Source: Acholoe squamosa (taxonomy: Eukaryota > Annelida > Polychaeta > Phyllodocida > Polynoidae). From it: a DNA stretch of 64,000 nucleotides. The notes under the pieces are model-generated. The model was not told the DNA's origin, searched no databases, and saw only the letters and a program-made list of their open reading frames with translations. Positions 2,580-63,660 of this stretch are shown here, piece after piece. The translations under genes and the position numbers were made by a program. Each line of letters starts with the position of its first letter. Within the stretch, counting starts at the first letter, position 1. The DNA lies in assembly GCA_949317995.1 (NCBI GenBank), contig OX439036.1:91673920-91737919 (forward strand), written 5' to 3'.

Positions 2580-2822
2580 TTAACCCTCTAAGCACAGCAT
2601 AATTCATAGCGATTCATTTTCCTTTGCCGCCATGATGCACCAATGTAATTGAGTCTATTCACTTAAACTGCACTGGTGCATCATGTCAAGTCTTCGGGAG
2701 GTTATCGAGCTCATATAGATTGCATCACTGAATGGATGCAACCATGGCTCATAGTATTATTAGGACTTTATCAATGCATCACAACGACAAGGTCACCCCC
2801 ATGCACCCCTTTAATGGTTATA
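2580..2822. mobile_element. Cloverleaf foldback element, copy 1
   Basis: It starts TTAACCCTCTAAG and ends CCCTTTAATGGTTA. Inside are CATGATGCACCAATG and its complement-like GCACTGGTGCATCATG. This is one of the clearest copies for the proposed TTAA-CCCTTTAA terminus. Confidence 0.7.
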
Positions 2823-3664
2823 AATAGGGTAGAAATGAGTGAATAGGAACATAGTAGCTGTCGGTTTTCATATTTTCAATATGCAGTTACACCATTAATC
2901 CACAATTATCTACATTAACCTTTTAAGGGTCACCATAAGCTCAAACTCCTCGTATACCAGTAGTTCTATTTGCATTATACAGGTATATTCACACACACAT
3001 TAAACACAAGCTATGGCTAAAGCAACGCATCAGGTACCTGAGGATGCTCGAGTACTTTGGTCATTTTTTATATGGAGATAACAGTGGGCCACTTGTTTGA
3101 GTAAATTATATATCATACCTCTGTTCATGACCAGAATAGATCTGTATGGCAGAGTGTACCGGACACATTCAGTGATTCACTTCTCCCAAATCCCCCAAAT
3201 AGGTATATGTCATGAGTCAGACAATAGTATTTATAGTTGTTTACGCATGGAGAACTCTTATATTCCTGAATCACTGCAAAATTCAAGTGCTATTATCAAG
3301 AATAAAAAGTGTTTTGGTGCAGTCTACTTCAGTACATGGCATTCATAAACATCCAAATAACAAATTATGGCGCCCGATTCATGGTATGTGTACGATTTAA
3401 GGCGAATCTACCCATCAACCCTGTAAGTTGAACTAGGGTTGACCTGATGTGAATTTCTAGACCACCAAATTGGGGCCTAGGGCTCCCCCATTGGTCTAAC
3501 AAAGAAGTCTAGACCTACAACAGTGGGCCGGTGATATTTATAACTAGCATAGGTAGGACTCTGGTCCCCCATATTGGCCGTGCTGCATATGGCACATCAC
3601 GTGTTGGGGCTATTGGGGGACAATGGTCGTCTTCATCTGGGACCTGCGGGAAATTACACCGCTG
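2823..3664. other. Unassigned spacer
   Basis: Mostly AT-rich single-copy-looking DNA. No gene or repeat recognised. Confidence 0.4.
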
Positions 3665-3889
3665 TACCCTGTCATGGCCGCATTATGTCCATCTGTGGTT
3701 ATGATGGAAAACTGCCCTGATGAATCTGCTCACCAGGGCTGCATTCATGCACCATGCTGACCCTGTGAGGTTAGTACACGCTCTAGAAGGTCGTTCTGAT
3801 GCCCCAGCACTGCATTGGAACATTATAGACGGCGCCAGAATAATATGAACTTTCAGGAATCATACAACATGTATATTTTAAAGGGCTAG
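3665..3889. mobile_element. Cloverleaf foldback element, copy 2
   Basis: It has ATGGCCGCATTATG (outer arm), CTCACCAGGGCTGCATTCAT (side hairpin) and GCACCATGCTGACCCTGTGA (central arm). The right outer arm is diverged but ends TTTTAAAGGG. Confidence 0.7.
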
Positions 3890-5027
3890 AGGGGAGGGTC
3901 CCTACACGTGAGATACGCATGAGGCAGTTGATGTCACAAAAAGAAAATATGGAACATTTGACTTTCCATGGATATATGACTCAATAATAACTTGTACTGG
4001 GCGGCGTATTGATGTTTCTCTGCCTGACACAGAATGAGAATACTGGTACTAATACACTGCTATTCTGGACAACCCCGACTTGAAGACAAGAAGACCAGTT
4101 TAAACAGGACATATAGTGGAAAGATTTATGTAAAGGAATCACGCAAGACTTTGTCATTCTCTGGTAATAGTTTCTTGATGGGTAAAAAATGGCGAACGGG
4201 TTTTTATTAATTTTAACTTGCCTCCTTTCACGGTGCTCATAAAAGACTCATGTTTATTGAAGACCAGTTTATAAAATGCAGTATAATACGTGTTCCAAAT
4301 CCCTTCAGCAATCTATGTATGGGCAGGGTTGTAGAGCGTGAGAAATGACCTCTCTGTGTGCGTGTATGTGAGAATGTGTGTGCCCTTCCCATTTCCTATA
4401 CCAGTACTCGACCCACCTAGACACCTACCTGTAGAGGTATTTATGGCCCTGTGTATAGAATCTGTGCTTTGCTGCTACCCCCAGAACATAAGGAGGAGGG
4501 TGGGGACAGTCACCGTGTACAATAATACTTCACATAGAGTCTATGGAGCACAGCGAGGTCTCGACTAACGCAGGAAGTGTCAGGTAACTCTAAACACCAG
4601 AACACAAGTGTCGGGTATATTGGAGACCACCCTCTACATGGACGTACCTTTGATATTTCCCCAGTCTATTGATATAATCTTTGCATTGCTAAGGTTAGTC
4701 GTTAAAATATTAGTCATAATTATATGGGTTTTGTTCATTCATCAAAATGACATTATTTTCCGACCTATCGCGAAGTGTTACCCGTGGTGGTCCATGTCCA
4801 ACCACGGGAAACCAGTGTAGCACTTGAGTCTGGTGGTTGTTCTCACTTAGCGCGGCTCGGTATAAACAAAAGCCGGCAGGATCCAAACTGGTGTGGATCC
4901 CCACACGGCGTACAGGTGGGGGAAGGTAACATGAGACGGGGAGGCACCGGGCAGGGCCCCCACAGCTGATGTATAGTGTACAGGGCTGCCTGACCCCCCT
5001 TCTAGTACTAGTCTATGTATATAGGGC
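3890..5027. other. Unassigned spacer
   Basis: No gene recognised. A TATAAA at 4860-4865 in a locally GC-richer patch (4780-4960) is the only promoter-like feature, and nothing downstream supports it. Confidence 0.4.
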
Positions 5028-5235
5028 TAACTATCTATTGGCTGAATGATGCCTCTAGGTTAGTGGTCCGTTATGCATGACACCTGTGCTGGCGAGTCGA
5101 CTCGCCAGAGCATTGCACATAATGGCGCCCCTGTAGAGGTGTCTCGACCCAAAGGGCTGTATGAATCCAGCCCTGGTGAGTTACCTGTCGGGCAGAGTGG
5201 ATTAAAGCACTATGTTGCATTTACAGAGTTAAATG
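5028..5235. mobile_element. Cloverleaf foldback element, copy 3
   Basis: ATGATGCCTCTAGGTTAG marks the left outer arm. The first side hairpin is a perfect loopless 20 bp palindrome, CTGGCGAGTCGACTCGCCAG (5089-5108). CCAGCCCTGGTGAGTTACC marks the second side hairpin. The right end is degraded. Confidence 0.65.
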
Positions 5236-5769
5236 CTACAGGTTGTGTACAGGGGTGGGAGGGTGAGAAGGGGTACAAGGTCCACGTTTACATTAGGGTG
5301 CATTGGTACAGTTACAAGGACCATAATAACACTTGTCTATTCCACCCCCTGCCCACCTCCCTGCATACATACATACAACACAGAGTAGACCACTTATTAT
5401 GGAGTGGCTGACCTTGGTCATTAGAACGCTACATTTATGTAGAAACAGGTTCCCTTATTAACCACCTGCTCCATTCCTCCACATACCCCCTGCTATACCA
5501 AGGATGTGGAGTCTTCTGTGGGACCGTACTTATGGCGTTGTACAGACTACACCCTACCTATATAAGTATAATCCCACTGTGTCCATTCCTTCATAGGTGT
5601 ACAAAATGTAAACCTTTAGAGGGCAACTTAATGGCCCATGTTTACGTTCCTTTGTTTTGGGAAGAAAGTTGACGCCAGAATGCCTAGAGATGTTCAAATG
5701 AAAGTCCCTAAACGCAAGTGTATTTGAAATTATTATTTGAAAATCCTTCAGGTCGAGGACGTCTGCTTT
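5236..5769. other. Unassigned spacer
   Basis: No gene or recognisable repeat seen. Confidence 0.4.
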
Positions 5770-5944
5770 TTAGCACTGAATTGGTGCATTATGCTAACCC
5801 TCCAGAATTGCAACGACTCTATTGGTTTAGCATGATGCATAAATGTAGCCCTTGTTAGTAGACTCACCAGGGCTGCATTCTTGAATGATGATGACCATAA
5901 AGGAAATAGTACATGAAAGTACCATGCAGTCGTTAAAGGGTTAA
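5770..5944. mobile_element. Cloverleaf foldback element, copy 4 (left-truncated)
   Basis: It begins inside the first side hairpin (TTGGTGCATTATGC) and runs through AGCATGATGCATAAATGTAG and ACTCACCAGGGCTGCATTC to a canonical CGTTAAAGGGTTAA end. Confidence 0.7.
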
Positions 5945-6940
5945 TACCTGGCTGTTAGTGGATGCTGGGAGACCCCATACAGGGTCCCTCAGGTTTGGGG
6001 CATGTATGCACCACTTACCTGGACTTGTCTAACCGTGGTGGTAGGGGTCATTCAGGCTGAGGTAGGCAGCTTTTGGGACGGGGGGTACTCCACAGGAGGG
6101 TTGAATTAAGAAAACCTGACCCATATGATAATTGCAGGGGGTAGACTGGCCGCCTCTTGGGTACAATGGCGATCACACATCTATTGTTCGTAACCCCACA
6201 TACGCTAGTATACCGGTAGTAGGTACATGTAGCTCTCTGTTCACAAATCACAGTTTGTATGCGGTAATATACTTGTCTATAGTATTCTGCATGTCAGCTG
6301 TGACATTTTCTGCACATAGTCTACCCTTCCAATGTCAACCAAACCAATGTCAAACACACCCCGAGCATGTCGTTGTTTCCATGTCCAATGACTATGCACA
6401 TACATTCAATACTGCTGCCAATTCTCCCATCTTATCACACACACAACTTAGTATATAGTTAAGCCAACCAATGTAAACCCACATAGTAGCTGTCCCTTTG
6501 TTTTATGTCTACACCTATTAATATCGCACTGCTTATTTTCCCTGCCTGTCACATATATAAATACTACCTACCACGGTATTTTTCACCATCTGTGTGTCTT
6601 CTCCGCCCATTTCTATAGGCGCCAGGTAAGGGGAGCACTAATGGTGTCCCTGGGCTAGTGCCAGGGGGCACAAACAAGGTAGTGGGGGCCTGGGGACTAC
6701 ACCTGACTGTTGCTTACAGAAACTAAAGTATATGGACGATAAACAGGCCCCTAGAGAGTCATGGAGGCAGTTGGTTGGTGGAAATCTGTTAGTGTAGAGA
6801 TGGTATAGAGGGAATAGTGAGGACAGAGAGAAACGAAGACAGAGAAACATCATGTGAGAGAAAAGAAGACAGAGCCAGAAACAGGGAGGAGCAGTAGAGA
6901 CAAAGACAGCGACGTAGAGAAACAATGACAGAGGAAATCA
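5945..6940. other. Unassigned spacer
   Basis: No gene recognised. GCGCCAGGTAAGGGG near 6619 looks like a splice donor, and a near match occurs at about 28830 (GCCGCCAGGTAAGGGC). Neither has a supporting open frame. Confidence 0.35.
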
Positions 6941-6950
6941 GGGAGGGAGG

Positions 6951-7012
<62 letters not shown>

Positions 7013-7064
7013 GAGAGAGACAGAGGGAGGGAGAGAGACAGAGACAGACAGAGAGAAAGACAGA
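6941..7064 (+). repeat. GA microsatellite
   Basis: GGGA/GA repeats with about 46 uninterrupted bases of GA near the centre, grading into CAGA/GAGA units. It produces artefactual Ser-Leu and Arg-Glu open frames on both strands. Confidence 0.95.
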
Positions 7065-7156
7065 ATATCAATGGGAAATGGGAAGGAAACCCATCAATAT
7101 CTACAGCCAGAGACCTAGCACTAGTGGTGGAGACATGTAGGACTGTACAGGACTAT

Positions 7157-7334
7157 GAGTGAGTAATAGATGTTTAACGCCATTCCGACAGCTAAGGTCA
7201 TATTCATGGTGAGAACTACATTACACAATTTCACAGAAGAATGTGTCGTGCCCGCGCATATGTGCAAAACACACATCCTGAATGGATAGAAAAGAGGAGA
7301 TGTAGACGCTTTTAAGTGGGCTAGGGAAGCCCGC
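7157..7334 (+). mobile_element. SINE-like GAGTGAGT repeat, copy 1
   Basis: It starts GAGTGAGTAATAG, then a TTTAACGCCATTCCGACAGC block and a GCGCATATGTGCA palindrome-like segment, and ends in a small hairpin GGGCTAGGGAAGCCC. The same order occurs in three other copies. No clear RNA polymerase III A/B boxes and no poly(A) tail were seen, so SINE status is unproven. The GA microsatellite lies about 90 bp upstream. Confidence 0.7.
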
Positions 7335-12605: not shown

Positions 12606-12785
12606 GAGTGAGTGAGCAATAGATGTTAAACGCCATTTCGACAACTGAGGTCATATTTATGGCGAGAACTACATTACACAAATTCAGAGGAATGTGTCAG
12701 TGCCCGTGCATATGTGCACCACACACATCCGAGGGGATAGGAAAGAGGAGATATATACACTTTCAAGTGGGCTAGGGAAGCCCTG
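12606..12785 (+). mobile_element. SINE-like GAGTGAGT repeat, copy 2
   Basis: It has GAGTGAGTGAGCAATAG, ACGCCATTTCGACAACTGAG and the 3' hairpin GGGCTAGGGAAGCCC. Close in sequence to copies 1 and 3. Confidence 0.7.
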
Positions 12786-13292: not shown

Positions 13293-16126
13293 TCCAAATA
13301 CAATTACTGGCATCGTTATTTCATGCTGTTGGCATCATTATTGGATATTTATATCATTAAACTAATAAAGGCCCATGATTCATAGAATTGGCTGCGCCCC
13401 AGCAACACCATTCCGCAACGGCATCTACTCTGTAATAAGATATGGCATTGTTGGATGTCTGTACTAACATTATGGATACATGTATGTCAGAATAGGGTCA
13501 TGTATTGTACTGTCTAATACCTTATAACTTCAGGGGGTAATTTAATTGTGGTTCAAGTTAGTAATAGTAGTTTGATTTTAAACCATTAACATTTAACACA
13601 TGTTCTATCTTCTTTGATCTTATAAATCAATAAAAGAGAGAAATGAATGAAACAATTCGATAAATTTGGGGTAAAAAATTACCTAGTACCCGCTTGTTGT
13701 TATAATCTATTGATCATGTTCAGACTACAATCATCAATTAGTAGTGATTAGTGGTATGACCTCTTGAGCAACTTGCCCAAACACCATAGAACCACAATTA
13801 GGTCATATAGGTGTGAAGGCTCAGGGTGGCATATATACTCCTAGCATTATGATGGATTGGAGATATAAAAACAAAAACAAACAAAAAACCAAAAAGAAAC
13901 AACAAAAAACACTCCCACTATGAGTCCTCAGTCACTGAGTTGGTAAGGAGGCGTGGGGCAGACAGAGGAGAGGGGAAATGTTCCACTAGTCAGAGCTGAA
14001 GGTTGGTCTCACCCACGTCTTCTTTGATCGCGTGGTCTGGAAATGTGTGTCTTTATTTTGGAGAAAACGGAGCGGATGCCTGGCAGCCAGTCACCAGAAA
14101 GAAGCCGCATCCCGCGCCTATTTCTTCCACTTTGTTGGAAATGACTTCTCTGATGTCTGACCCTCTTCTCCTCTCTCCCTCCTCTCACCCTACCTCCTCC
14201 TCTACCGCCCCTCTCTCTCCCCCCGCCTGCTACTTGCACCCTACACGCCCCCTGCTAAATCCCCCCTTATTTTACAGCACGAGTTTAGTCTCAACATCAC
14301 CGGTCCATACTGCACTTAATTAAGAAAGTAGTCCCGTTACTGCGAAAAGGTAATCAAATGTTGTTGCATGCATTTGTTTCCCTTATATCTAAAAGAAACG
14401 TTTTTGTTTTCTCCTGAGAGAGTGCATTTTGATCTGAATATAATATTATTATGTGCATGAACTGGAAGGGGCCTCACGAGATTGACCATACGGTCTCGGC
14501 TTGCTGGATTCTACACCAACTAGAACGATGCAAAACCCTTCTCATACGTGTATACTCATTATCATGATCCTCGATATACAAAGCTGAGAGCACGGGATAG
14601 GGGTTTCTGAATATAATCAGCTCCGTTTAAGCTCTTAAGACCTATAATGTCATAGACCTATGGTGTCATAGCATACTCCATCTCGGATCCCCACCCTACA
14701 CCATCTCCTCCTCCCCAACCTCCTTCTGTACCCTTGCCATCCGTCTACCGCTGCACAAAACCTCGAGGATGCATCAAAAGGTGCCTCCTCCAGGGCAGGG
14801 TGAGAAGGGGCATATAGCTCGCACTAAAGTTCACTACTCACTCCCCGGGTACTCACTACATGTGTCTGGTAAGCCATGGCTATGGGTTCATTGAGGTTTC
14901 AAGCACCTGATGAGATTGAACACACTCATACATCAACTATTTGTCTTCAGATCAAGCTCAACTTAATAAATCTCTTAGTAGACTGCAGAAATGATTAAAA
15001 GTCATCATCGACTAACACCGATTGTAACTTCTAATCCACAAGGTAGAAAAAGATGACTGTTTTTACAGTGTTGTGGGGCCTTCAAAGATCGTGCAATGCA
15101 TCAGAACAATATACAACTGTCTTCCAACTTCAATACAAAGGCTGAATTCTGAGACGCTGACTGACAGTCGATGAGAGGTTAGAATGATATGTCTGTTATC
15201 GTTCTGAAAAGGGACCTTCGTCAGCCTAGCCAATAGTTCTGAAATTGAGTATACCATTCTTCTGCAAGGCACCAACCTCTCACTGTTACCGATTACAATT
15301 CCTTAATAATACAACACCAGCCCTGGAGGACCAGCCCCAGTGCACACTGCACTGGCCCTGAAGACACCGGACCGGAGTGGCTTTATTTTCTTTCTTAACC
15401 CCCAATTATCAATGAAAGTTAGGTTTTAAGTCCAATTAGTATTATGTCATGCGGCCGGCATACGTGCTTCACCCTGGTTTTATTAGCAATCAACAATAAT
15501 CACAACTGTCCCCTTGGCATGCTGAAGACGGTGTTTTTAGCTGCATGGAGAGGGCTGAGTGGTAGGTGGATGGAGTTGGTGGAATCCTCCTTGTGAAAAG
15601 TATAAAACCCGTCACAGCACATAATAACATTGATTGTAGACTGCTTTCTGTCTCTAGATGGAAACTGTCTGTTCTCCTGGGTCCGTAATCCCCACAATTT
15701 TACCAGCATTGTATTATATATGAAACATATTCTAATTTTATCATTTCAGAAACCAGTCATACCGCCTCTGGCGTGCAGTCTCTGTCACCATGCCATGGAC
15801 TGACGGTGCAATGGTTAGGCATGACTCCTATAAATCTGCGCGGATTTTATGAAATCTCAAATATTTCAATTTCACAATTTGAAAACCAATGCCTTAAGCG
15901 AGTTAAAACTGCTGACGTCGTGAGAATGTGAGCTGCTGATGGGAAGATGGCGAAAGCTGCACACGTGCCGACAACAAGAGACGCCGCTGTATTCATGATG
16001 ATGCGGATTGGGGTGTGGTAGTAGTGGGGGTCGGGGAGAAGAGGCTAGGGGTGGTTTGGAGGTCGTCGGCGGAATGCACCCTGTGACCCTCCCCCTCCGC
16101 TACACACCTTTCCAGTGGATGAGCAT
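13293..16126. other. Unassigned stretch
   Basis: No gene recognised. It includes an A-rich AAAAAC-type tract at about 13865-13910 and a pyrimidine-rich tract at about 14158-14270 that creates Pro/Ser-rich frames. A CpG-bearing patch at 14020-14120 could be a conserved element but shows no clear exon. Confidence 0.4.
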
Positions 16127-16345
16127 AATCCTTTAAGGTCTAAATGATGCCTTATAATGTTCATGTTCCTTTGTCGTCCTGATGCACCACTGCAGCACTG
16201 CCGTGTGCACCGGACTATCATCCTGACCCTTCAGAGGTGCCTTAGCTCCATAGGGTCGGCATGATGCATGAATGTAGCCCTGGTGAGTAACTCGCCAGGG
16301 CTGGGTTCATGCATCTGACGACCAGAGTGCATTAAAGCACGATTC
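16127..16345. mobile_element. Cloverleaf foldback element, copy 9
   Basis: One of the best copies. It has CCTTTAAGG and ATGATGCC (outer arm), TTCATGTTCCTTTGTCGTCC, TAGGGTCGGCATGATGCATG (central arm) and AGCCCTGGTGAGTAACTCGC (side hairpin). The right outer arm is degraded. Confidence 0.75.
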
Positions 16346-18781
16346 GTCCATAAAATATTGATATGAGGCGTGTGGAGCAGATCCTTACACCACGTAGCTC
16401 CACTCACCTGGACACAGGTACGCCGTGAGTCATGCTGCACGGGGATACAATGCTCATTTACAGGTGTGACGGCATATTAAGGCAGAATTCTACATAATAT
16501 GCCTGTATAACTGAGCATATAACAGTAAATATACATCAACTCTGAAAGCATAGTGTCGAGCTATATGCCGGTTAATCAACAACTGCATCCCATATTACTT
16601 GGGAAAAGTTTTCATCTTACAAATGCTGAATCCAGGAACAAGGAGATAGAAAAGGTGTTCAGAGGCAAACGTGTGATGCCAAGGCTAATAATCCCGATTG
16701 GGAGGTAGGGGTGTTAGGGTGCGACGCTCATTAATTAATTAACCTGCCATATTTCAAACAACACCCAGAAAACAAAAAATGAAGTAAATATAGATTCATG
16801 CGAAAAGATAAAATTATTCAGACAGAGTGTTATCTCTTGGATTGCATTTCCTTGAAGCCTTGAGTCATTACGCTATAGTATGAGTTTTCATTCTATTGAC
16901 ATCACATAGGGCTAATTTGCAAATGGCTAAATAATAAAAAACAAAGAGGTGAAGATGATATTGATATCTTTAATCAGCTAACAGTTATTCAGTGAATATA
17001 ATGACGTCATTATCCAGGACCACACCTATCACTATAACTACAGTTTACCTTACCTGTACTGTCTGTGTTGGTAACTCTATACGAAATGTATATTTGCCAT
17101 GCTAATCATAACTGCTCACTGAATTTACACAGAGTAAATAGCTTTACATTGTACAATGTATACCGTTTTCAGTTTAGCCACATACATGTAGTGTTATAAA
17201 TGTTGATGCACCATAGACCTTGGTGGCTGTGATATTTAATTGTGGTCCTGACCAGATACACTATCGGCTTAGGTTATTAACAGCACTGCTTTTTCTTTAC
17301 ACATGATGCCAAATGAGCACTATCTCGTGGCATCATAATGGCAATCGAGGTAGCATTTCAATCAGTTTGGTATAGCTTCTGTAGAGGCATGACTACAGCT
17401 GTATTAGGATGGACATCTAGAAAGAGCTGATAATGAACACGATTCTGTACAAATATTCATAATACTGGCACAAATCTGTCTGAGGTAAGTATAGTGACCC
17501 ACACACATACATTGGACCTTGGTGCTATCTATAATAAGATAACCCCAGCGGACAGGGCGACAGTATTAAGTCACATCAAACAGATACCGGGACTACCACT
17601 GATATCCTTTTGGCCAGGCTGACCGATTGACCTTCACGTAATACATACAGACAGGTATACGTACCTGTTGTTACCTGAATGTGTGTATATAAATTAAGTA
17701 TACAGGATTTGTGCTGTGATTGGAAATAGGACATATGGAAAACAATAAACACGTGCATACATACATATACTAACAGTTGTGTAATGTACTGCTGGATTCT
17801 GTTTGATGTACAGTCAGAGGACTCGGCATATGTACATGACCGACCATTTCTAGCTCTGATACTATAATTATAGGTCATCCTTAAACTTGGAAATACTTTG
17901 TAAAACAAGATTAATTAATTATTTGTTAAGGTATTATCATAGATTATAATTATTATGCAACTAAATAAAAAAAAAAATGTAATCATTATTCCTGGAATCT
18001 TAAAAAGTACACCCGTGTAAAACTAGGGTATACAATTTCGTGAGAAAAAGAAAGACAAAGGGAAAAAACGTCATTCACGTAATACATTCTTGATACTCCT
18101 GCTGGCTATCATCAATCAATGTCAAAACCTGGTTGCGTAGTCAAAGCAGGTGAGGGGGTGTGAGTGATTCCAGCAGAGGTGAGCAGCTACTGTGAACTAC
18201 TGCTCATCTACTCAGTCCCCTGCTCTGACTAACCCTAAAAATGATCTGGTATATGTAGGGCTGGGAATTTGCCATAAGATCACTCCCATTATGTAGCTTA
18301 TTTTTGTAGTCACACAATCTCAACAGTAACCAGTGCTATTCTACACCACGGGAGGCTAAACAAAAAGTGTTTGGTGTATATCCGCACCAGCAGTTTAGCA
18401 GGTAGCTTTGAGAGTTAACAGGTGTATTATGCACCACAGGGACTCCATGAATAATAAGTTTGCAATTTTGAACAGTTACCAGCGGTGTTTCACATCACAG
18501 TGTATATCTGAAATGTATTGCCAGGACCCTTGTATGTGTTTCGTATACCATTACCAGTTGTAATGTACACCCCCGGTGTACACTACTAGGGTAATCTGTA
18601 CCTGTGAAATTGTATCTGTTTGTATCTGTGTATTGTTATGGTTTATGTTTACATGTGATGTTGATCACTGCAGTGCGGGGTCCCCATGTATCTGTGTAAT
18701 GAGATGGAATCCTTTAAATGGCATTGTACACTACACATACCTTTACCTGTGGCATTATGATTATATATTACACGGTCTCCA
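16346..18781. other. Unassigned AT-rich stretch
   Basis: No gene recognised. ATTAATTAATTAA occurs at about 16730 and similar at 17910. A CRE-centred palindrome is listed separately. Confidence 0.4.
16998..17013. promoter_or_regulatory. 16 bp palindrome centred on a CRE
   Basis: ATAATGACGTCATTAT is a perfect palindrome containing TGACGTCA, the full CREB/ATF site, in otherwise AT-rich DNA. Function is inferred from the motif only. Confidence 0.35.
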
Positions 18782-19324
18782 CGTATAGGGCACTAGCATA
18801 TCAGGTCATGGAGGCCGCCATCTTGCTTTGCATCACGGGTAGGCCCCTGACTCCACAGCAGTGCATTCTGGGTAAATTTCTTATCAGCCACTGTTCACAC
18901 CTCTAAACAATGGTGATTGATAACACTGATAAGGGTGACAAGCTGCACCCTGCCCCTATCTTAATCACCTCAAGTACCTCCCTATTGTTTCAGGTGTGAG
19001 GGGAGTGGATTAGCTTGATAGGGAGACAATGGCCTGGGTGTACTTAATGTGGGGGATATGTGACCTTTTATTGGAATCTTAAAGCTTTATTTTGAATGTA
19101 TTTATTTCTAACTATTAGGTTTAAACTAAGCTTATCTAGTTAAAGTTGGCAGTATTTGCTATACAGAGATATAAATTTCAGAAAATAGCTACAAGTAGTT
19201 AATGAGGAAGTGAGCATCAAAGTAAACTATACAAAGAGGCCAATTGTTGATCTAGCCTCCGAATACATGAGTCACTTAGCTGATTCTCTCAGTACTAGTA
19301 ATAATTATGCTAGTGCCGTATACG
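18782..19324 (+). mobile_element. TA-type MITE family B, copy 1
   Basis: A roughly 543 bp element with 19 bp inverted ends: CGTATAGGGCACTAGCATA at the left, and the right end reads TATGCTAGTGCCGTATACG. The TATA at each end fits duplication of a TA target, as for Tc1/mariner-like elements. An internal foldback pairs CACACCTCTAAACAATGG (about 18895) with CTATTGTTTCAGGTGTG (about 18980). The body is collinear with the copy at 44.4 kb. No transposase frame, so non-autonomous. Confidence 0.8.
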
Positions 19325-22942: not shown

Positions 22943-23120
22943 GAGTGGGTGAATAATAGATGTTTAACGCTATTTCGACAGCTGAGGTCATAGTCATGAC
23001 GAGAACGACATTACACAATTTCACAGAGGAAAGTGTCGGTGCCCACGCATGTGCACCAGACACATCGGAGGGGATAGGAAAGAAGAAAAATATACCCTTT
23101 TCAGTGGGCTAGGGAAGCCC
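22943..23120 (+). mobile_element. SINE-like GAGTGAGT repeat, copy 3
   Basis: The start is altered to GAGTGGGTGAATAATAG, followed by ACGCTATTTCGACAGCTGAG and the 3' hairpin GGGCTAGGGAAGCCC. A CT/TA microsatellite begins about 20 bp after its end. Confidence 0.7.
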
Positions 23121-23138
23121 AACCGGAGAAATGTACGG

Positions 23139-27372: not shown

Positions 27373-27567
27373 GAGTGAGTGAGTAAAATTGTTTTACGCC
27401 ATTTCAACAGCCGAGGTCATGTTCATGGCGGAAACTACATTATACATCACATTATACATACATCAGATGGATGTTCCGACGCCTGCGCATATTTGCACCA
27501 GCCACACATATAGGGTATAGAAAATACAAGATTAAGACTCTTTAAGGTTGGGCTAGGCAAGCCCAGA
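27373..27567 (+). mobile_element. SINE-like GAGTGAGT repeat, copy 4 (divergent)
   Basis: It has GAGTGAGTGAGTAAAATTG, TTTTACGCCATTTCAACAGC, GCCTGCGCATATTTGCACCA and the 3' hairpin GGGCTAGGCAAGCCC. It carries an internal short duplication (CATTATACATCACATTATAC) and is more diverged than the other three. Confidence 0.65.
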
Positions 27568-33405: not shown

Positions 33406-33665
33406 TTAACCCTATAAGGGTGGCATTGTGTGTTTAATGCATCATGTCGCCATTATACTGTAATGCAGCCCTGTCGGGTAACTCTCTATCTATAGCTACA
33501 GTCATGGATCATGCTGACTCTATCAGCTTGATACACCCACAATGGTTCAACATGCTGCACTAATGCAGTGCTGGTGAGTAGGCACGCCAGTGCTGCATTT
33601 ACGCATCATGCCAACCACAGAACATAAACCTGGAGGGATGATGGAGCCCTTGAAGGCCTTAAGGG
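33406..33665. mobile_element. Cloverleaf foldback element, copy 15
   Basis: It starts TTAACCCTATAAGGGTGGCA. It has AATGCAGCCCTGTCGGGTAA, a TTGATACACCCACAATGG central arm, the side hairpin GCAGTGCTGGTGAGTAGGCA, and ends CCCTTGAAGGCCTTAAGGGC. One of the longest copies. Confidence 0.75.
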
Positions 33666-37812: not shown

Positions 37813-37996
37813 TTTTCATAGTCATATGATACATCCGTATTTCTGTTGCTTTGTCTTCGTGATACACCAATGCAATATTGGGAGAGTCACAAGCAGTGTA
37901 TTGCCCGGGGTGTATTGGCCCTGTAATATCGGTATGATTGATGAATGCAGCATCCATGTATTATGAAGAGAAAAGCGTACAGTGCATTAAATCACT
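37813..37996. mobile_element. Cloverleaf foldback element, copy 16
   Basis: It has TTGCTTTGTCTTCGTGATAC and ACCAATGCAATATTGGGAGA (first side hairpin), then GATTGATGAATGCAGCATCC. The outer arms are largely gone. Confidence 0.55.
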
Positions 37997-38040
37997 ATAC
38001 ATGTATAATATAAATTATGCGGTCTTTGTGCACATGCAGG

Positions 38041-38430
38041 TACATGTCGTAGTGACACACTACAGTGGTACATGTCGTAGTGATACACCACACACGTCGT
38101 AGTGACACACTACAGTGGTACATGTCGTAGTGATACACCACACACGTCGTAGTGACACACTACAGTGGTACATGTCGTAGTGATACATCACACACGTCAT
38201 AATGACACACTACAGTGGTACATGTCGTAGTGATACACCACACACGTCGTAGTGACACACTACAGTGGTACATGTCGTAGTGATACATCTCACACGTCGT
38301 AGTGACACACTACAGTGGTACACGTCGTAGTGACACACTACAGTGGTACACGTCGTAGTGACACACTACAGTGGTACACGTCGTAGTGACACACTACAGT
38401 GGTACACGTCGTAGTGACACACTACAGTGG
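38041..38430 (+). repeat. 28/22 bp higher-order minisatellite
   Basis: Exactly 390 bp: one 28-mer, then five 22+28 dimers, then four 28-mers (ten 28-mers and five 22-mers). Each 28-mer contains the hairpin GTAGTG-ACA-CACTAC; the 22-mer (TACATGTCGTAGTGATACAC plus 2 bases) lacks the right arm. Units are nearly identical, so the array is young. It begins about 45 bp after cloverleaf copy 16. Confidence 0.95.
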
Positions 38431-39200
38431 TCAGTGTACAGGTGGTATGAGAACTCACGTGGACGTAACCGGAGAAACAGCTGGTCAGCATTGCACCCCA
38501 TTGCATAGATAGGTCATGGAGCAAGGGGCAGGGGAGGGGTATACACCCCCTGCAGTGTACACTAGTAGTGGTGACTGATTGAAACTGCATAGAGCTTGCA
38601 AAGAAAAGAATCTCAGTGAAAAGGTGATTTTTTTTCAGGGAATTTTAGCCAAGGCCCAACACAGTTTTGCCTTTCCAAATTCTTGTCAAGGGAATAAGAG
38701 TAGGGTCAATCCATGCCGGTACCAGCCAAAGGAAGAAGTTGATGGGTTGACCATGTCGGTGTTCTGGAGGTCTGGGGGGAGCGGAGAGGGGTCAGTAGTG
38801 GTGGAGGGGCGGGGGGGGGGGGTGTCCTGCCTGACAGATGCCGTTACCTGGACACGCCAATTACGTCAGGCCGCGTGCCGTATTGTTATCGTGCTTAGCG
38901 ACATGCAAGGTCGGACCCCCGTGCTCTGATGACCCACCCCCTCCTCATAGCCCATATGGGGACAGTAAAGAGGGGATGAGGTGTATGTGTGAAATAGTGG
39001 TGGAGGAGGTGGGGGGTTGGTCCCTGTACAGGCTGTGGAATGTTACATGGATCCTAATAATGTAGTAACCCATATCTAACAAAGGTCATTATATCAATTC
39101 AGAAAACTAACATACATTAGACATGTGTAGGAGATGCCAGGGGATTCACCACCAGCCCTGTAGCCCTTGCCAAATGTTAAGCCACTCAAAGACCAAATGC
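38431..39200. other. Unassigned spacer with a CpG-rich patch
   Basis: 38841-38920 is CpG-dense (CAGGCCGCGTGCCGTATTG) and stands out from its flanks. It lies inside an open frame but has no recognisable domain. Could be a conserved element or a fragment of an exon. Confidence 0.3.
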
Positions 39201-44396: not shown

Positions 44397-44927
44397 ATAT
44401 GGAACAGAGCCATTCCTGTATGGAGGTGGCCATCTTGAAATTAGTTATGTAACTGGCCCTCGACGGCCATTTTGGATCTGGCAGAGGATTGTGGATAATC
44501 TCTTATCTTTCTCTCCACCCACAGAAAACAATGGGAATTGATAAGACTGATAAGCTGCCCCTGCCTCTATTTTAATCACCTTAAGTACCTGTCCATTGTT
44601 TTAGGTGTGAATGGATTGGGTTAGCATGATAGGGAGACAATGGCTTGGTTTTACTCAGCCTGGATTATATTTTCCCTCTAAGAAAACTTTTAAAGTTTAG
44701 TTTCTCTTGTATTTGAAGTACTAAGTCTATATAAAGCTAACATTGTTTAAGTTTATAAAGTATTTACTATCCAAAGGTATATATTTTTAGAATATACCCT
44801 CATATAGACTTTTAGGAAGGGCCTACCAAAGTAAACTGTACAAAGAGGCCAACTGCTGATCTAGCCCCCGACTACATGAGCCACCTAGGAAATTTGTTTG
44901 GTACTAGCAATGGCTCTGTCCCGTATA
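44397..44927 (+). mobile_element. TA-type MITE family B, copy 2
   Basis: 531 bp, collinear with 18782-19324 across the whole body (for example CAAAGTAAACTGTACAAAGA and GCCAACTGCTGATCTAGCCC here). Its inverted ends are TATATGGAACAGAGCCATT and, on the plus strand, AATGGCTCTGTCCCGTATA. These match each other at 17 of 19 positions but differ from the ends of copy 1. Confidence 0.8.
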
Positions 44928-48496: not shown

Positions 48497-49990
48497 ACTA
48501 GTGTAAGTGAGGAAACATCCATATGTTACAGTAAAGGGTCCTACCTCTGTTTGTACAGCTGGTTCTTCTAACAGTACACCATGCTTAAATGTACATACCT
48601 GCAATAGGAGAAGGGAGGTATTAATACATATATTCTACACTTAATGAACACATAATTTCAGTGGAAAATAATTCTGCCTGTTTGTCAGCACAAAAAGATA
48701 TACAAACAGGTGGTCGGAAAAAAGTTTTAATTCAAAAATGATAAAAATTTAAACTCTGCTCGATTGCACACGGTATTCTTTAAAATTGAACTGGATCCAC
48801 TGACCAACCAATTCGACCTTGATAGCTTTGTTGTCTCGGCCACATGGATTGGCGATCCAACACGAGCACTCTATATATAAAAACGTAAATTTAACTTTCG
48901 TGTTTGGTGTAACCTAAATTTTAGACAATCGCAATTTCATCTAAGAGCAGGGCATTAGTAACGCCATGTCCATGGCCCACACAACAAGATCGTAAGATGA
49001 AGCGATTGCTTAATCGCGAAGAATATATGAAAAGAGTTTAAAAGGGGTGCACAATAGATTCATCCCACTAATGATCCCTTTTTACTTTAAGTATGGGTTA
49101 CGTTTGTCTTCCATGGCCTTCTCTTGATCTTTCCCCTTTCTCCTTGTGGATGAAGGGCACTCGTGCAGACAGCATATAGTGCTAATGTAGCTATTCCATT
49201 ACCTGAGAATTGTCAGAGCATAACAGTCTCTGACGGCGACATAGGGGAATGTTAACACCAAGGAACATGAGCCCATCACCTCCTATCCCTCCCCACCATC
49301 TCACCAACCACCCCTCACCAACACCGATAAATCAGCACTGCGCACCAACCACTGCTCCATCACCCCAGGGTCATTAGGTGCAAGGTCAAGGTGAGCTGAA
49401 GGTCAGAGATGGATCCTCTACCTGTGTGGGTTGTGTAGTGGGTGCTGATTGGTACATCAAAGTGAGGCCAGCCTCGTTTTCACTGTCAGACTCCCCCGCA
49501 GACATTACCCCTGTACACCAGCAGGCACAGGTAGGGTCTCAATTTGCCCCAATGTAAGTCTAACTTACTCCATGGTCGGTGGACTTGGTATTTCTAGCCT
49601 TTATCCTTCGGGTGCTCGGAGCTGTAACCCCTGAGGGAGCTAGCTACTTTTAGCCCCTTAGCCTGGTAGTGCTTTAAAACCTTCAACATGTCCTTTGGCT
49701 GTAAGGATGCAAAGCGTTCAAAGTAAATGAATCATTGGTAGTTAAATTGCTGGCGCTACATCTATACATAGAGTCCACCCTGTAAACAAAAATTGATTCT
49801 TGCTATTATGTTGGAAACATATAAAAAGAGTCAGCATGTTAAGATGTACGAGAGTAGGGATTGTGAGTTACTTGCCCGTCTTGGATAAGTGCATCCTGTC
49901 GGGCGATGGGACAACATGAACCGGGAAGCACGTCTTTTGAAAGGAGTTGTGACGAGCAGAATGAAAAGAATGTAGCTCTACTGCACCTGC
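48497..49990. other. Unassigned stretch
   Basis: No gene or repeat recognised. Confidence 0.4.
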
Positions 49991-50793
49991 CAGGCTGATA
50001 CACTCCTGTAGGATTGGCATGATGCTCTAACAGCTGATATAACTCTACAGCACCAGGCTGATACACTCCTGTAGGATTGGCATGATGCTCTAACAGCTGA
50101 TATAACTCTACAGCACCAGGCTGATACACTCCTGTAGGATTGGCATGATGTTCTAACAGCCGATATAACTCTACAGCATCAGGCTGATACACTCCTGTAG
50201 GATTGGCATGATGCTCTAACAGCTGATGTAACTCTACAGCACCAGGCTGATACACTCCTGTAGGGATGGAATGATGCTCTAACAGCTGATGTAACTCTAC
50301 AGCACCAGGCTGATACACTCCTGTAGGATTGGCATGATGCTCTAACAGCTGATGTAACTCTACAGCACCAGGCTGATACACTCCTGTAGGATTGGCATGA
50401 TGCTCTAACAGCTGATGTAACTCTACAGCACCAGGCTGATACACTCCTGCAGGATTGGCATGATGCTCTAAGAGCCGATATAACTCTACAGCACCAGGCT
50501 GATACACTCCTGTAGGATTGACATGATACTCTAACAGCTGATGTAACTCTACAGCACCAGGCTAATACACTCCTGTAGGATTGGCATGATACTCTAACAG
50601 CTGATGTAACTCTACAGCACCAGGCTGATACACTCCTGTAGGATTGGCATGATGCTCTAACAGCTGATGTAACTCTACAGCACCAGGCTGATACACTCCT
50701 GTAGGATTGGCATGATGCTCTAACAGCCGATGTAACTCTACAGCACCAGGCTGATACACTCCTGTAGGATTGGCATGATGCTCTAACAGCTGC
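49991..50793. repeat. 63 bp minisatellite, 13 units
   Basis: Units begin CAGGCTGATACACTCCTG at 49991 and then every 63 bp to 50747; the last unit is partial. Each contains GATTGGCATGATGCTCTAAC. The unit is 21 codons long with no stop in several frames, so 222- and 229-codon minus-strand frames run through it (peptide unit VYQPGAVELHQLLEHHANPTG in one frame, 21 residues when complete). Identity of units and multi-frame openness argue for a young non-coding array. GATACACTCC...GGCATGATGC matches the central arm of the cloverleaf elements. Confidence 0.95.
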
Positions 50794-51391
50794 GAGTGCA
50801 TTGGGACTAGGGCCTGTGTTTAGGTTTAAGAGAATATAAGAAGTACCCCCCCCCCCAGCAGAGCTCATTTCACAGTCACTTACTCCTCAGCAGGCTTCTC
50901 ATCATGAGGGTATTCCCACAGGGGTATTCCCCACAGGTACTCCTTAGACGACTGGCAACGTTGCACACATATATGCTGAGTATTGCTTCCATCAAGTTTT
51001 GATCTGATACTATTAAAGAGATGAAGTATGGATATCATGATCATAGCTGTATATGATTGGGCAGTTATATACTAGTACCTAGCAGCATAATCAGTGACTT
51101 TATAACTCTACCACTACCTCCTTTTTTAAATGCAGGGATGTACGTCAGTTATGGGCAAAAATCAGGAAGCCATACATTTACTTGATATAAAAGCCTTCTG
51201 TTTTTTCCCAACCAGCCTTCTTTACCACTGGTATAGGGAAAATATATGTCATTCAAAATTTTTAGAAATCAGGAAATCCTGATAAAACCTGAAGACTTAC
51301 ATCCCTGTAAATGGTAAGAAGGATGAAGTAGCTAGTATATTACATGTCTAGGGATTGCTTTAGACGTACAAGGCTCACAACACAATTCATT
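50794..51391. other. Unassigned spacer
   Basis: No gene recognised. Confidence 0.4.
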
Positions 51392-54109: not shown

Positions 54110-54111
<2 letters not shown>

Positions 54112-57533: not shown

Positions 57534-57540
57534 CGATAGC

Positions 57541-59875: not shown

Positions 59876-60105
59876 CCTTCATGATGCAACAACGTAGCAA
59901 GAGTGATCAGCTCTGATCAACCGAGTTTAGCGACTTTTCAGTACCTAGTCGATATTAAATGCCAATGCGATCTCCCAGAGGCATCCACATGGGGGCTTGC
60001 TAAGGCTGCATCCAGGCATCATGCCAATAGAATGTATTATATTAATATTTCATAGGCCTCGATGCATCAGTGCATTATACCCATTGGTGCATCACCTAAC
60101 CTCCC
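59876..60105. mobile_element. Cloverleaf foldback element, copy 33 (diverged)
   Basis: It has CCCTTCATGATGCAACAACG, TGCTAAGGCTGCATCCAGGC, ATCATGCCAATAG and CGATGCATCAGTGCATTATA. Outer arms not recognisable. Confidence 0.5.
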
Positions 60106-60771
60106 AGGAGGGTATCGATGCATGTTGAATAAATATAGCCACGGGCCTGGTCAGGTGGCAGTTGGTAGCCACTGCAGATTTTATGAGCAGGTTATTGGAG
60201 ATGGTGCGTTATTCTTCCCCCCACCTGCCAAGCCCTTACATTTTATAGACTCCTTATCAATGTGTGGGGTTAACCATACTCCCCAATGTCTGTCATGCCC
60301 CTTTTCCTATTTTCTGGCTGCTGTCTCTTGGTGCCTTGATAGGTTAAGCTAAGTTAACGTCCTTCTTTCTATTTGACCCAAAAAATAGCCTTCCGGGTGG
60401 AGCTGTGGCAGCGTCATACCTGTTCTAGGTTTACTACAAATGGGACGTTTCAAATTGAATTCCTGATTGTATTACCAAAGACTTGAGCAAGTCTAGACAT
60501 GAATTACACAGAGTTCCCACGCAGTCCTTATAGAGAGCTCGTGCTTCTAAGTGATTAGTAATGCACAGCACCAGATGTGAGGTCCTAAGGGGTTATTGTT
60601 GTTACACATATTGATTACTGAACATCATGATTTATTACTTACCAGAATGACTACTACATAATTAATACTAACACCCAGCACAAGACGGTGCTTGTAATTA
60701 AAGTCTACAACAAGTAAACCGTTACATTCACAATATGTTAGGTATCATGATTTGTAACTCCTCATATTGGT
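60106..60771. other. Unassigned spacer
   Basis: No gene or repeat recognised. Confidence 0.4.
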
Positions 60772-61000
60772 TAACCCCTTCATGGCTGCATGTAGCTTCA
60801 ATGTACCTAGACGTCAACTATATGGACACCATCTCAGGGGCGTAGTCATGCATCACACTGACACCATAGGGTTGATGAACATCTAAAGGATCTCTCCATC
60901 GCTGCGGTGTTTGTCACTAGCTAAATAGATGGGAATTAGGCATGGAGTCTTGAGGTATCAAGTCATGCTAAAATGCAGCAACATGATATAAAGGGCTTGT
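60772..61000. mobile_element. Cloverleaf foldback element, copy 34
   Basis: It has TTAACCCCTTCATGGCTGCA at the left, GCATCACACTGACACCATAG and GGGTTGATGAACATC (central arm), and ends AACATGATATAAAGGGCTT. Confidence 0.55.
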
Positions 61001-61949
61001 GACGTCGGTTGAAGCTGTGGTTTCTATTGGTGCCCCTTCTCATTACTAATCTAGCAGTTATATTACTGGCAATAGAGGTCGTGTGGTGGAACATATGTAC
61101 ATTTGATATAGCAGTACTTGGTGTTATTAGGTTGACCACAATGGAAACACTTCATGGTAATACTGATAAGCACTTTATACTCATGAGTCCCAATTTCCAG
61201 AAGTTTCGGTTCAGGCTGCTTTTCTCCTTGTGCCTAATAATCGAACTAAAACCATGTGCATAACCTTTGTCCTTTATACGGAATTGGAAAGGCAATTCAA
61301 GGCACATATTTGCAGTAAAGCGAGACTGGTTTTGTGATAACATCTTGTGAAAAAAAACCCAATGTATTCAAGGATCCATTCATTGAAAAAGAAAATCAGT
61401 CATGCTGGGCCACGCTGCTCAAATCGCAGACTTCTCTCATTACGTTTCATTATTTTCGCTATCACCACGAGCTTTACACATAAATCTGTGTGCTCTGTTG
61501 GGGTGTAGGCTCCTTTAGCCAGGTTACAGAGCTCAACTGGAAATTTCACAATTTCACAATTTTCTTTTAGATGAGGGAACTTGTATAACGTACATTGTCT
61601 ATTGAGAGGAACCATGCTTTAGGCATTTCCCCTCCAAGAAGCAGTCCTTTCTAGTGGTGGGTATTGCTATAGCCGTCAATAGTGAAGGGGATGGGCAGGG
61701 AAGTGAGGCTGTGTAGCCTAGTCCGAAGAGCATGACCCAACCTTTTACCAATATGATTATGACACAGTGTGGGGTTGGGGGGGGGCAGGGCCTGCTAGAC
61801 CCTAATCAATAACCCTATTGGGGTCAGACACTGCCGCCCTCATTACGTATTCCCGGGACAATACCCCCGAGGCTGATCACACTTACAATGAGTAGCCATA
61901 AAATCCAGGTCACCCCTGAGCCACTATAGAGCAGCTCTCTTGGCTACCC
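61001..61949. other. Unassigned spacer
   Basis: No gene or repeat recognised. Confidence 0.4.
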
Positions 61950-62235
61950 TGTAAGGACTGTGTAGTGAAGTGTTAACATTTTAATACACATGTACCTATC
62001 GACATGATGCATGAAGGCAGCCGTCGTGAGTCTACCCTCCAGGGGTGCATTTATACACGATACCGACCCTATGGGGTTGGTACAGTCCCACATAATGCCT
62101 CTAGGTTCATGATGCTCTGCCACCATGATGCAGTACTAGTGAGATCACTGCATTAGCACGTTGTGCCTGTAAACATGGCAATCCTATCAATAAATGACTA
62201 AAGGGCATAATGTAGTATGTCTATAAAGGGTTAAG
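61950..62235. mobile_element. Cloverleaf foldback element, copy 35
   Basis: It has CGACATGATGCATGAAGGCA, CTCCAGGGGTGCATTTATAC, GACCCTATGGGGTTGGTACA, ATAATGCCTCTAGGTTCATG and GCCACCATGATGCAG. It is longer than usual and has outer-arm sequence in mid-element, so probably two overlapping copies. Ends TATAAAGGGTTAA. Confidence 0.65.
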
Positions 62236-62734
62236 GTGTGTGAGTAACCCATTTAGGGGTGTTTGGGGTGCTCATTTGGGGGGGGGGTGGAGGTTCAAGG
62301 CAAGTTAAAGGATGCTGCACTTGATTGTCATCGAATTTAAGGCAGAGTCCATAAATATTTCATGATGTCCCAAGCTGCCGTGCACTTCATGCATGGAACT
62401 GGTCTATTTTTAATGCCCTGAAGTCCACCACCTTGATCTATAATGAATGATCAAGTCAATAATATCGAACAGGTTGTCGGCGCAGGGCATATCAAGCCTA
62501 GAGCGTAAAATAAACACGCGAATTGAAAAAGAGAACGCTCTAAATAATGAAAAGTCATGGATGTGACCAAACTGTATTGTTCGCAGGTTCTTCAAGTGAA
62601 CTTCCCTCCACTAAATCACACACAGAGTGAGAGTGTTTAAGATCTGTATAGCGTCTCATATTTTCTGTTCTTTTGCTGTCTCTATATGACAATGTATTTT
62701 TGCCGACCTATATCAGGAGTTCATCAACCACACA

Positions 62735-62822
62735 GTGGGTTGGTATGAATATGGCGTGGGCTTAATTCAAGCATCGTGATGATCAAGTGCAATAAAAACC
62801 CATGAAGGCCTTAAAGTATTAA
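62735..62822. mobile_element. Cloverleaf foldback element, copy 36 (right half)
   Basis: It has GGTTGGTATGAATATGGCG, TCAAGCATCGTGATGATCAA and CCATGAAGGCCTTAAAGTAT. Confidence 0.45.
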
Positions 62823-63506
62823 AAGAACGGCGTCGGGCGTTCTTTCAGTGACAAAAGCTGTGTAACTGTTTCAAACGGCCATAGCCTTAGGGTAGAAATA
62901 GGAGAATCCAACGTAGCAGAAGTACACTTGTAGAAATAGCACTGCCAGACAGGGAAGGGACTAGAGGAAAGATTGTTCATAGAGGGAAAGCCCAATGGAC
63001 TGTCCGCCGTGATATATCGGGAATTTCACAGTAAAATTATACAATGTATGAATAAGTGTAAGAAAGTCTTTAAGTGAAGGAATCTTTTTTCTATAGCAAA
63101 TGTCTGGACCAAGAAAGGTTCTCAAATCTCGCGAGATTTCGGCCCATTTTTACTGGTCAATTAAAACTAATCTAGAAAATACATGTATCGTATACTTTTG
63201 AACTCTTTTTTCGGTACAAAATGTTTAGCTTGAATATTGGAATAACAGTCTGTAGCATTACTCTGACTACGTTTGGAATGGCAGACCCCTAGACTACCGG
63301 CAGATCCTTCCTGCACACGGCGGCCCACAGGAGATATGCAATAAGTTGGCCGTATTAATCAGCACAGCCGGGCGCTGTGTCGCAATAAGGTCGTGTTCCC
63401 TTTGTACGGCCATTACCTGCAGGCACCCCGCCCTAAGGGGCTGCTACATCCAACACCGCTTCCAGCTCATGGTAGATAGGGAGGCCTCCAAAGATAGAGA
63501 GATGCC
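62823..63506. other. Unassigned stretch with a CpG-rich patch
   Basis: 63316-63440 is CpG-dense (GCCGGGCGCTGTGTCGCAAT) with TATTAATCAGC and CCTTTGT words. It differs sharply from its AT-rich flanks and could be a conserved regulatory element. No exon recognised. Confidence 0.3.
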
Positions 63507-63660
63507 AACTCTTTATGGGCTGCATGGTGATTTAACCCTATACAGATCCCCCCCAGGTTCATATTCCTTCCCTTTAACGTCCATGTTCCTTCCCTTTAAC
63601 GCCTCTTGATGTTATGTTACATGGATGTAAGCCTGTAGAATGATGGTCCATAAAGGGCTG
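63507..63660. mobile_element. Possible cloverleaf element remnant
   Basis: CAACTCTTTATGGGCTGCAT and a twice-repeated TTCCTTCCCTTTAACG. ATGTTACATGGATGTAAGCC and ATAAAGGGCTGAA lie further right. Very diverged. Confidence 0.4.

What the first reader, a model, noticed from the sequence alone, without database searches (positions are those of the whole stretch)
2580..63660. A dense family of three-hairpin (cloverleaf) foldback elements
About 40 diverged copies or fragments share one architecture. Outer inverted arms enclose two side hairpins (GCAGCCCTGGTGAGT / ACTCACCAGGGCTGC) and a central arm (GACCCTATAGGGT, GGCATGATGC). The word GCATCATG or its complement recurs about six times per element. Ordinary MITEs are a single inverted repeat; a nested design that could fold as a four-way cloverleaf, recalling viral or replication hairpins, is unusual. 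Side-hairpin pairing seems kept in diverged copies (copy 3 has a perfect 20 bp palindrome), which may mean fold matters for spread. Arm order and copy count are seen; the fold and its role are inference.
Basis: partly seen in the sequence, partly recalled or inferred. Interest (0 to 1): 0.85.

Follow-up and report, generated by a model that had tools for sequence, protein, structure and literature searches.

The report
Three-hairpin piggyBac-type miniature transposon family
The window is crowded with old copies of a 258-letter DNA parasite that carries no gene, looks like a piggyBac-type transposon, and whose reconstructed sequence could fold almost completely on itself into a cross with three hairpins.

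Summary
A family profile finds 51 hits in the window: 38 dispersed copies or fragments and 13 units of one minisatellite; they cover 11.3% of the bases. The consensus from genome-wide copies is 258 bp; 236 bases pair as a four-way junction with three hairpins (-137.6 kcal/mol, z -27). It has the hallmarks of a non-autonomous piggyBac/TTAA transposon: ends CCCTTTAAGGGC...GCGGCCCTTAAAGGG flanked by TTAA. One family member lies at the TTAA of an abundant repeat whose uninterrupted copies have one TTAA. The 16-base end TTAACCCTTTAAGGGC occurs 6,600 times, 0 in the reversed control. piggyBac transposases exist in the genome; none was shown to share these ends. The fold is real in the consensus, but copies decay almost neutrally: stem columns rank like any others in a mutual-information test; another test is mildly positive. 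Two subfamilies differ by four compensated pairs, and hairpins are lost, multiplied or swapped. Unexpectedly, the 40 scored best copies all lie within 15 Mb of a chromosome end. Verdict: an unusual new variant of a known kind; a role for the fold is unproven.

The parts
16126..16354 (+). Best-scoring window copy (model 2-251); left hairpin shortened, right hairpin nearly perfect
   Evidence: family profile 169.3 bits; fold z -6.1
33407..33656 (-). Near-full copy with GGGTTAA end (model 6-257)
   Evidence: 153.0 bits
5757..5943 (+). Copy lacking the 5' part (model 75-257)
   Evidence: 124.2 bits
7643..7819 (-). Copy (model 2-178)
   Evidence: 112.2 bits
30501..30741 (+). Near-full copy (model 3-256)
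   Evidence: 110.6 bits
43992..44215 (+). Copy (model 40-257); the family is palindromic, so the strand call is uncertain
   Evidence: 109.6 bits
53492..53685 (+). Copy (model 3-235)
   Evidence: 109.0 bits
11707..11955 (-). Near-full copy (model 15-257)
   Evidence: 94.7 bits
31363..31586 (-). Near-full copy (model 3-256)
   Evidence: 91.4 bits
39202..39463 (-). Near-full copy (model 2-256)
   Evidence: 90.8 bits
40825..41023 (+). Copy (model 3-222)
   Evidence: 89.7 bits
55522..55705 (+). Copy (model 2-211)
   Evidence: 89.7 bits
2581..2790 (+). First copy of the window (model 2-214)
   Evidence: 88.8 bits
21172..21350 (-). Copy (model 36-254)
   Evidence: 87.8 bits
61981..62232 (-). Last copy of the window (model 3-232)
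   Evidence: 85.5 bits
3678..3863 (-). Copy (model 19-229)
   Evidence: 85.3 bits
23827..24040 (+). Copy (model 2-219)
   Evidence: 84.8 bits
42846..43052 (-). Copy (model 44-256)
   Evidence: 84.3 bits
44966..45167 (-). Copy (model 4-225)
   Evidence: 81.6 bits
47002..47226 (+). Near-full copy (model 4-257)
   Evidence: 67.1 bits
49985..50786 (-). 63-bp minisatellite whose unit contains the central-hairpin part of the element (model 71-144). The 20 rows above are 20 of the 38 dispersed hits; the other 18 are not listed here
   Evidence: 13 tandem hits; period 63

Best explanation
A family of non-autonomous, gene-less miniature DNA transposons (MITEs) of the piggyBac/TTAA kind. It inserts at TTAA and is presumably cut and pasted by a piggyBac-type transposase supplied in trans. 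Its 258-bp master is built from one repeated motif (CATGATGC plus a stem) laid out in inverted arms, so 236 of 258 bases can pair as a four-way junction. The CATGATGC words stand around the junction, so it can branch-migrate. I infer two things. First, the repeated inverted motifs act as internal transposase-binding sites. Second, arms stay complementary in the replicating lineage mainly through hairpin-templated repair, template switching and slippage, which also delete, multiply and swap whole hairpins; selection on the fold is possible but not needed. SHOWN: boundaries, palindromic ends, consensus fold, a hairpin difference between sister loci, near-neutral decay of copies. SUPPORTED BY ONE CASE: the TTAA duplication at an empty site. 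INFERRED: the transposase, binding by the motifs, the arm-correction mechanism.
For: Sharp edges at TTAA|CCC...GGG|TTAA: the eight TTAA columns are 57-77% conserved, the next columns outward 46% or less (35 aligned rows, one of them a duplicate of the window copy). Empty site: at C15:51560683-51560964 two patterns, each end of the element joined to one side of an abundant SINE-like repeat at its TTAA, match with 2 mismatches each (left repeat side 7 of 8 bases, right side 11 of 11), 263 bp apart including both TTAA; 151 bases read between them match the family at 115.9 bits (L073). Uninterrupted copies of that repeat have one TTAA (L062, L007, window 7,227-7,332). A different short element with the same 12-base 5' end CCCTTTAAGGGC sits in the same TTAA, read with both flanks (L072). 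6,600 exact 16-base ends, 0 in reversed control. 90 matches to the piggyBac transposase family PF13843, 0 of 14 control genomes; one locus, L065, has a 470-aa open frame (PF13843, 5.6e-91), CCC ends, its own TTAA empty site, and an imperfect 56-bp palindrome next to its 5' end. TTAA and CC[C/T]T ends as hallmarks of piggyBac MITEs: PMC2872659 (abstract and passages). piggyBac C-terminal domains bind palindromes inside the ends: PMC11707139 (passages). Hairpin dynamics: L068 lacks one 57-bp hairpin that L070 has at the same duplicated insertion; L070 matches the model's left half from both ends; L003 has an inner unit in four overlapping hits spaced about 96 bp.
Against: No autonomous element with the CCCTTTAAGGGC end was found; three transposase loci were read and the one with recognised ends has CCCATTTAACCC. 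A second empty-site test (L018) found only the filled site. Only 3 of 33 two-ended copies keep TTAA exactly on both sides (counted from the list), as expected of old copies but weak by itself. Arm correction and selection are not separated by my data.
Confidence: 0.85

Rival explanations
1. The four-way fold itself is under selection: the element extrudes as a cruciform or folds as single strand during replication or excision, and the fold is read by transposase or junction enzymes.
For: Near-complete self-complementarity of consensus A (z -27); subfamilies A and B differ by compensated pairs 40-219, 46-213, 67-96 and 76-87 (random placement gives 1.4 doubly changed pairs on average, P 0.031 for four or more, 0.005 for the observed five); all five measures exceed shuffles (cells paired 77.7% against 76.4 +- 0.3, 0 of 500; pairs changed on both sides 58 against 48 +- 4, 7 of 500; cells 111 against 81 +- 8, 0 of 500; further pair types 172 against 160 +- 5, 4 of 500; covariation score 0.118 against 0.105, 0 of 500) and the covariation score exceeds the slid versions (0.039-0.057); 162 Watson-Crick double changes against 141 +- 9, 4 of 300.
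Against: Mutual information over 31,109 column pairs gives stem pairs AUC 0.51 (slid controls 0.47-0.56), and the one strong pair (67-96) ranks among unpaired diagnostic columns. Pair 76-87 is a CpG site that old copies lose on both sides. Subfamily B, the one filling the window, does not pair along part of its outer arm. The structure was drawn from the consensus and the shuffles ignore relatedness, which inflates; its counts of doubly changed pairs and cells are matched by slid controls.
Confidence: 0.12
2. A foldback (FB-like) element or a chance build-up of local palindromes spread by recombination, not a TTAA cut-and-paste transposon.
For: Long modular inverted arms; tandem amplification of parts (63-bp minisatellite, L003).
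Against: TTAA boundaries, an empty site, thousands of identical ends.
Confidence: 0.05
3. A retroposed RNA (SINE or tRNA-like cloverleaf).
For: Cloverleaf shape; about 260 bp; dispersed.
Against: No tRNA by ARAGORN and no Rfam match at the gathering score in the window; inverted terminal repeats and TTAA boundaries; no poly-A tail in the aligned right flanks.
Confidence: 0.01

Closest known systems
Coral CMITEs (piggyBac/TTAA MITEs of Acropora; PMC2872659, abstract and 12 passages read)
   Same: TTAA duplications; ends such as CCCTTTAAGCCCTA (family II), sharing the first nine bases with ours; no gene; tandem arrays; relation to piggyBac-like transposons in the same genome
   Different: About 100 bp; 'hairpin', 'palindrom' and 'secondary structure' have 0 occurrences in the main text; our family is 258 bp and folds almost fully as a four-way junction
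mPok MITEs of the Daphnia Pokey family (piggyBac; PMC4912750, passages read)
   Same: Non-autonomous piggyBac relatives; Pokey inserts at TTAA with target duplication
   Different: About 760 bp on average, 12-16 bp ends, few copies; no nested hairpins in the passages seen
piggyBac and piggyBat transposon ends (PMC11707139, passages read)
   Same: A palindrome inside an end, bound by two cysteine-rich domains, offers a reason for repeated inverted motifs
   Different: The passages describe single imperfect palindromes within an end; ours form whole hairpins throughout the element
Foldback (FB) elements of Drosophila (recalled, not looked up)
   Same: Long inverted arms made of repeated units, variable in number
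   Different: Recalled 9-bp target duplications; ours is TTAA

Membership tests
piggyBac/TTAA MITE | TTAA target-site duplication | tested here: met
   Consensus edges and one empty site in a SINE-like repeat, its flanks seen only as short patterns; 3 of 33 two-ended copies keep TTAA at both ends
piggyBac/TTAA MITE | Terminal inverted repeats of 12-19 bp starting CC[C/T]T | tested here: met
   CCCTTTAAGGGC / GCCCTTAAAGGG; hallmark as stated in PMC2872659
piggyBac/TTAA MITE | Short, high copy number, no transposase gene | tested here: met
   258 bp, too short for a transposase; 2,247 first-look candidates, the 40 scored cover 224-258 of 258 query bases at 86-92% identity
piggyBac/TTAA MITE | Autonomous partner with the same ends in the genome | tested here: inconclusive
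   PF13843 present (90 matches); three loci read, one with recognised ends, CCCATTTAACCC, not the same
Foldback (FB) element | Long modular arms with 9-bp target duplications (recalled) | tested here: not met
   Target duplication is TTAA
SINE / tRNA-derived element | tRNA or 7SL/5S head | tested here: not met
   No tRNA, no Rfam match at gathering score in the window
Helitron-like element | No terminal inverted repeats, no target duplication (recalled) | tested here: not met
   Palindromic ends and TTAA duplication
Viral terminal hairpin | Associated viral replication genes | not tested
   No viral gene search was run; nothing in the boundaries points that way

The most novel reading that the evidence does not exclude
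A cut-and-paste MITE whose spread depends on a branch-migrating four-way DNA fold: arms share the same CATGATGC base, so the extruded element mimics a mobile Holliday junction, and arms are kept complementary by selection or by self-templated correction in each cycle. The strong clustering of the best-preserved copies towards chromosome ends would then reflect where such junctions form or are repaired.
Probability: 0.12. Interest if true: 0.8.

Novelty: new variant of a known kind. Interest (0 to 1): 0.48.

Why it matters
MITEs are usually a single inverted repeat. A high-copy family whose consensus is 91% self-paired in a three-hairpin, modular layout, with sister loci differing by exactly one hairpin, makes a general question testable: are arms of foldback transposons kept complementary by selection on a structure or by hairpin-templated DNA repair? 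The placement of its best-preserved copies near the ends of chromosomes is a second, separate lead about where such elements insert or survive.

Tried and rejected
Copy-level covariation as proof of a selected fold: not accepted. Searches (72 copies, 118 pairs: 334 double changes against 316 +- 11; 162 Watson-Crick double changes against 141 +- 9, 4 of 300 shuffles as high, 19 of the 162 from one pair; right hairpin 22 against 15 +- 3, 8 of 300; AUC 0.51; 111 of 118 stem pairs could be ranked; 41 copies plus the typed consensus; positive on all five measures against shuffles, relatedness not removed). Rows dropped: L001 (the window copy again) but not from the 35 rows; L024 (segmental copy of L025) from the 114-copy set only; copies under 110 or 130 model positions or under 25 or 35 bits left out. 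The random-stretch density of 0.57% (18 stretches of 10 kb) is not a genome average: the stretches lie at relative positions 0.35-0.94. Empty-site tests within the sequence in hand: none passed the filter; the listing was cut, so it was not read in full. L018's flanks are single-copy. Viral-hairpin reading: no evidence, but no viral gene search was run. Host species: not identified; a gastropod-like genome is only my recollection of similar repeats.

Literature: eight listing searches (one search listed 12 of 338). No title or abstract start listed there described a three-hairpin or cloverleaf transposon family; this covers open-access papers only, and no repeat library such as Repbase or Dfam was available.
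Full report
WHAT IS THERE. The window is 64 kb of an unnamed 1.48-Gb genome (63 contigs, the window on C2:91673920-91737919). GCATCATG/CATGATGC occurs 43 times against 1-7 in ten Markov sequences. Iterated profile searches joined the pieces into one element. The family profile finds 51 hits in the window (7,203 bases, 11.3%), 44 in 60 kb of immediate flanks (7,069 bases, 11.8%), 10 in 180 kb of 18 other stretches (1,033 bases, 0.57%) and 0 in the same 304 kb reversed. The other stretches lie at relative positions 0.35-0.94 between chromosome end and middle, so 0.57% is not a genome average. Thirteen of the 51 window hits are units of a 63-bp minisatellite that contains the central part of the element.

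ANATOMY. Aligning 35 two-ended rows (L001 repeats the window copy; L024 and L025 are segmental copies) gives sharp edges: TTAA|CCCTTTAAGGGCCGC...GCGGCCCTTAAAGGG|TTAA. The TTAA columns are 57-77% conserved, the next columns outward 46% or less. The 258-bp consensus A folds as DNA with 118 pairs: outer stem 58, left hairpin 19, central 22, right 19, -137.6 kcal/mol, z -27 against 200 shuffles. It has six CATGATGC/GCATCATG words; minimum-energy and centroid structures differ by moving pairs between arms at the junction, that is, the junction can branch-migrate. Left and right hairpins look related to each other (CATGATGCACCAATGAAGTGCTGG against CATGATGCATGAATGTAGCCCTGG, by eye).

SUBFAMILIES AND THE FOLD TEST. 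A two-class mixture of 114 copies gives A (55) and B (59). Of 61 copies from the window and its flanks 53 are B. Window copies are 27.5% from the nearer consensus (median of 30), copies from the genome-search loci 15.8% (median of 50, chosen as best matches). The class consensuses differ at 32 columns, 26 in stems: five pairs changed on both sides, four staying Watson-Crick (40-219, 46-213, 67-96, 76-87), 16 changed on one side. Random placement gives 1.4 doubly changed pairs on average, P 0.031 for four or more, 0.005 for five; 76-87 is a CpG site. B loses pairing over part of the outer arm. Across copies the signal is weak: 334 double changes against 316 +- 11; mutual-information AUC 0.51, slid controls 0.47-0.56. 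Against this, (41 copies and the consensus) exceeds shuffles on all five measures: cells paired 77.7% against 76.4 +- 0.3, pairs changed on both sides 58 against 48 +- 4, cells 111 against 81 +- 8, further types 172 against 160 +- 5, covariation score 0.118 against 0.105. Slid versions match its double-change counts but not its covariation score. I read this as near-neutral decay after insertion, with some upkeep of pairing in the few lineages that replicated.

HAIRPINS AS MODULES. L068 and L070 are the same insertion in inverted copies of one locus (flanks match as reverse complements); L068 lacks exactly one 57-bp hairpin. L070 matches the model's left half from both ends, so the left hairpin stands on both sides. 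L003 has an element with an inner unit in four overlapping hits spaced about 96 bp. L071 is a 65-bp remnant with both ends. This is what slippage and template switching at hairpins would produce (inference).

HOW IT MOVES. An abundant SINE-like repeat (window 7,156-7,332, 12,609-12,783, 22,946-23,120 and others) holds a TTAA in ...AGACCCTTTTAAGTGGGCTAGGG. Two pattern searches joining element ends to that repeat, 2 mismatches allowed, gave 53 left and 9 right matches genome-wide (reversed control 1 and 0). One pair, C15:51560683 and C15:51560939, is 263 bp apart including both TTAA, and the 151 bases read between match the family at 115.9 bits. Uninterrupted repeat copies carry one TTAA. The same TTAA also received a different element, 223 bp with both TTAA, with the same 12-base 5' end (L072; my measurement), and the transposase-bearing L065. 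L065 has a 470-aa open frame matching DDE_Tnp_1_7 (5.6e-91) and an imperfect 56-bp palindrome beside its 5' end. TTAA duplication and CC[C/T]T ends are hallmarks of piggyBac MITEs (PMC2872659), and piggyBac transposases bind palindromes inside their ends (PMC11707139). Which transposase moves this family was not found.

ABUNDANCE AND PLACE. TTAACCCTTTAAGGGC occurs 6,600 times, 0 in control; other families share this end, so this is not a copy count. Consensus A gave 2,247 candidates, of which only 40 were scored: 86-92% identical over 224-258 of 258 bases. These 40 lie within 14.7 Mb of a chromosome end (mean relative distance 0.21, KS 2.6e-15); 38 piggyBac transposase places, grouped by eye from the 90 matches, do not (0.57, KS 0.10); the 39 places of the first search, seeded by a window copy, lean to the ends (0.31, KS 2.7e-6). 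On C1 the 100 listed exact ends fall within the first 8.3 Mb, 12 per Mb against a genome mean of 4.5 (arithmetic). The window itself is 24 Mb from its end (relative 0.42), so dense B copies are not confined to that zone; B's genome-wide placement could not be searched.

VERDICT. A well-supported piggyBac/TTAA-type MITE family with an unusual nested, modular, nearly fully self-paired design. I found no description of such a design in the searches named in Tried and rejected; the kind is known. The role of the fold remains open.

Noticed in passing
G000 chromosomes (one search places): The 40 scored best subfamily A copies all lie within 15 Mb of a chromosome end, while piggyBac transposase places do not cluster there.
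   Followed up: partly
window 7156-7332, 12609-12783, 22946-23120, 27376-27564: An abundant SINE-like repeat of about 178 bp (GAGTGAGTGAGTAATAGATGTTTAACGCC...AGTGGGCTAGGGAAGCCC); its TTAA is an insertion site for several TTAA elements.
   Followed up: partly
L072 53-275 (C5:52579590-52579930): A different short TTAA element with the same 12-base 5' end and tandem GTCGACTATAGTCGAC palindromes; ends with the same 216-base spacing also at C5:35448660 and C2:34360591 in the same repeat.
   Followed up: partly
C16:23824428-23826208: About 1.76 kb between like ends in the same SINE-like repeat, possibly a longer or coding relative; not read.
   Followed up: no
window 49864-50919: 63-bp minisatellite whose unit contains part of the element, with stop-free frames of 240 and 235 codons on the minus strand.
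   Followed up: partly
window 37992-38431: Tandem array of 50- and 28-bp units (ACATGTCGTAGTGACACACTACAGTGGT and the like).
   Followed up: no
window 18948-19302 and 44559-44911: Two copies (74%) of another dispersed repeat, about 25.6 kb apart.
   Followed up: no
L066 417-652 and L067 540-790: Inverted repeats of another kind (CGTATAAGNCGCGTC...) near two piggyBac transposase loci.
   Followed up: no
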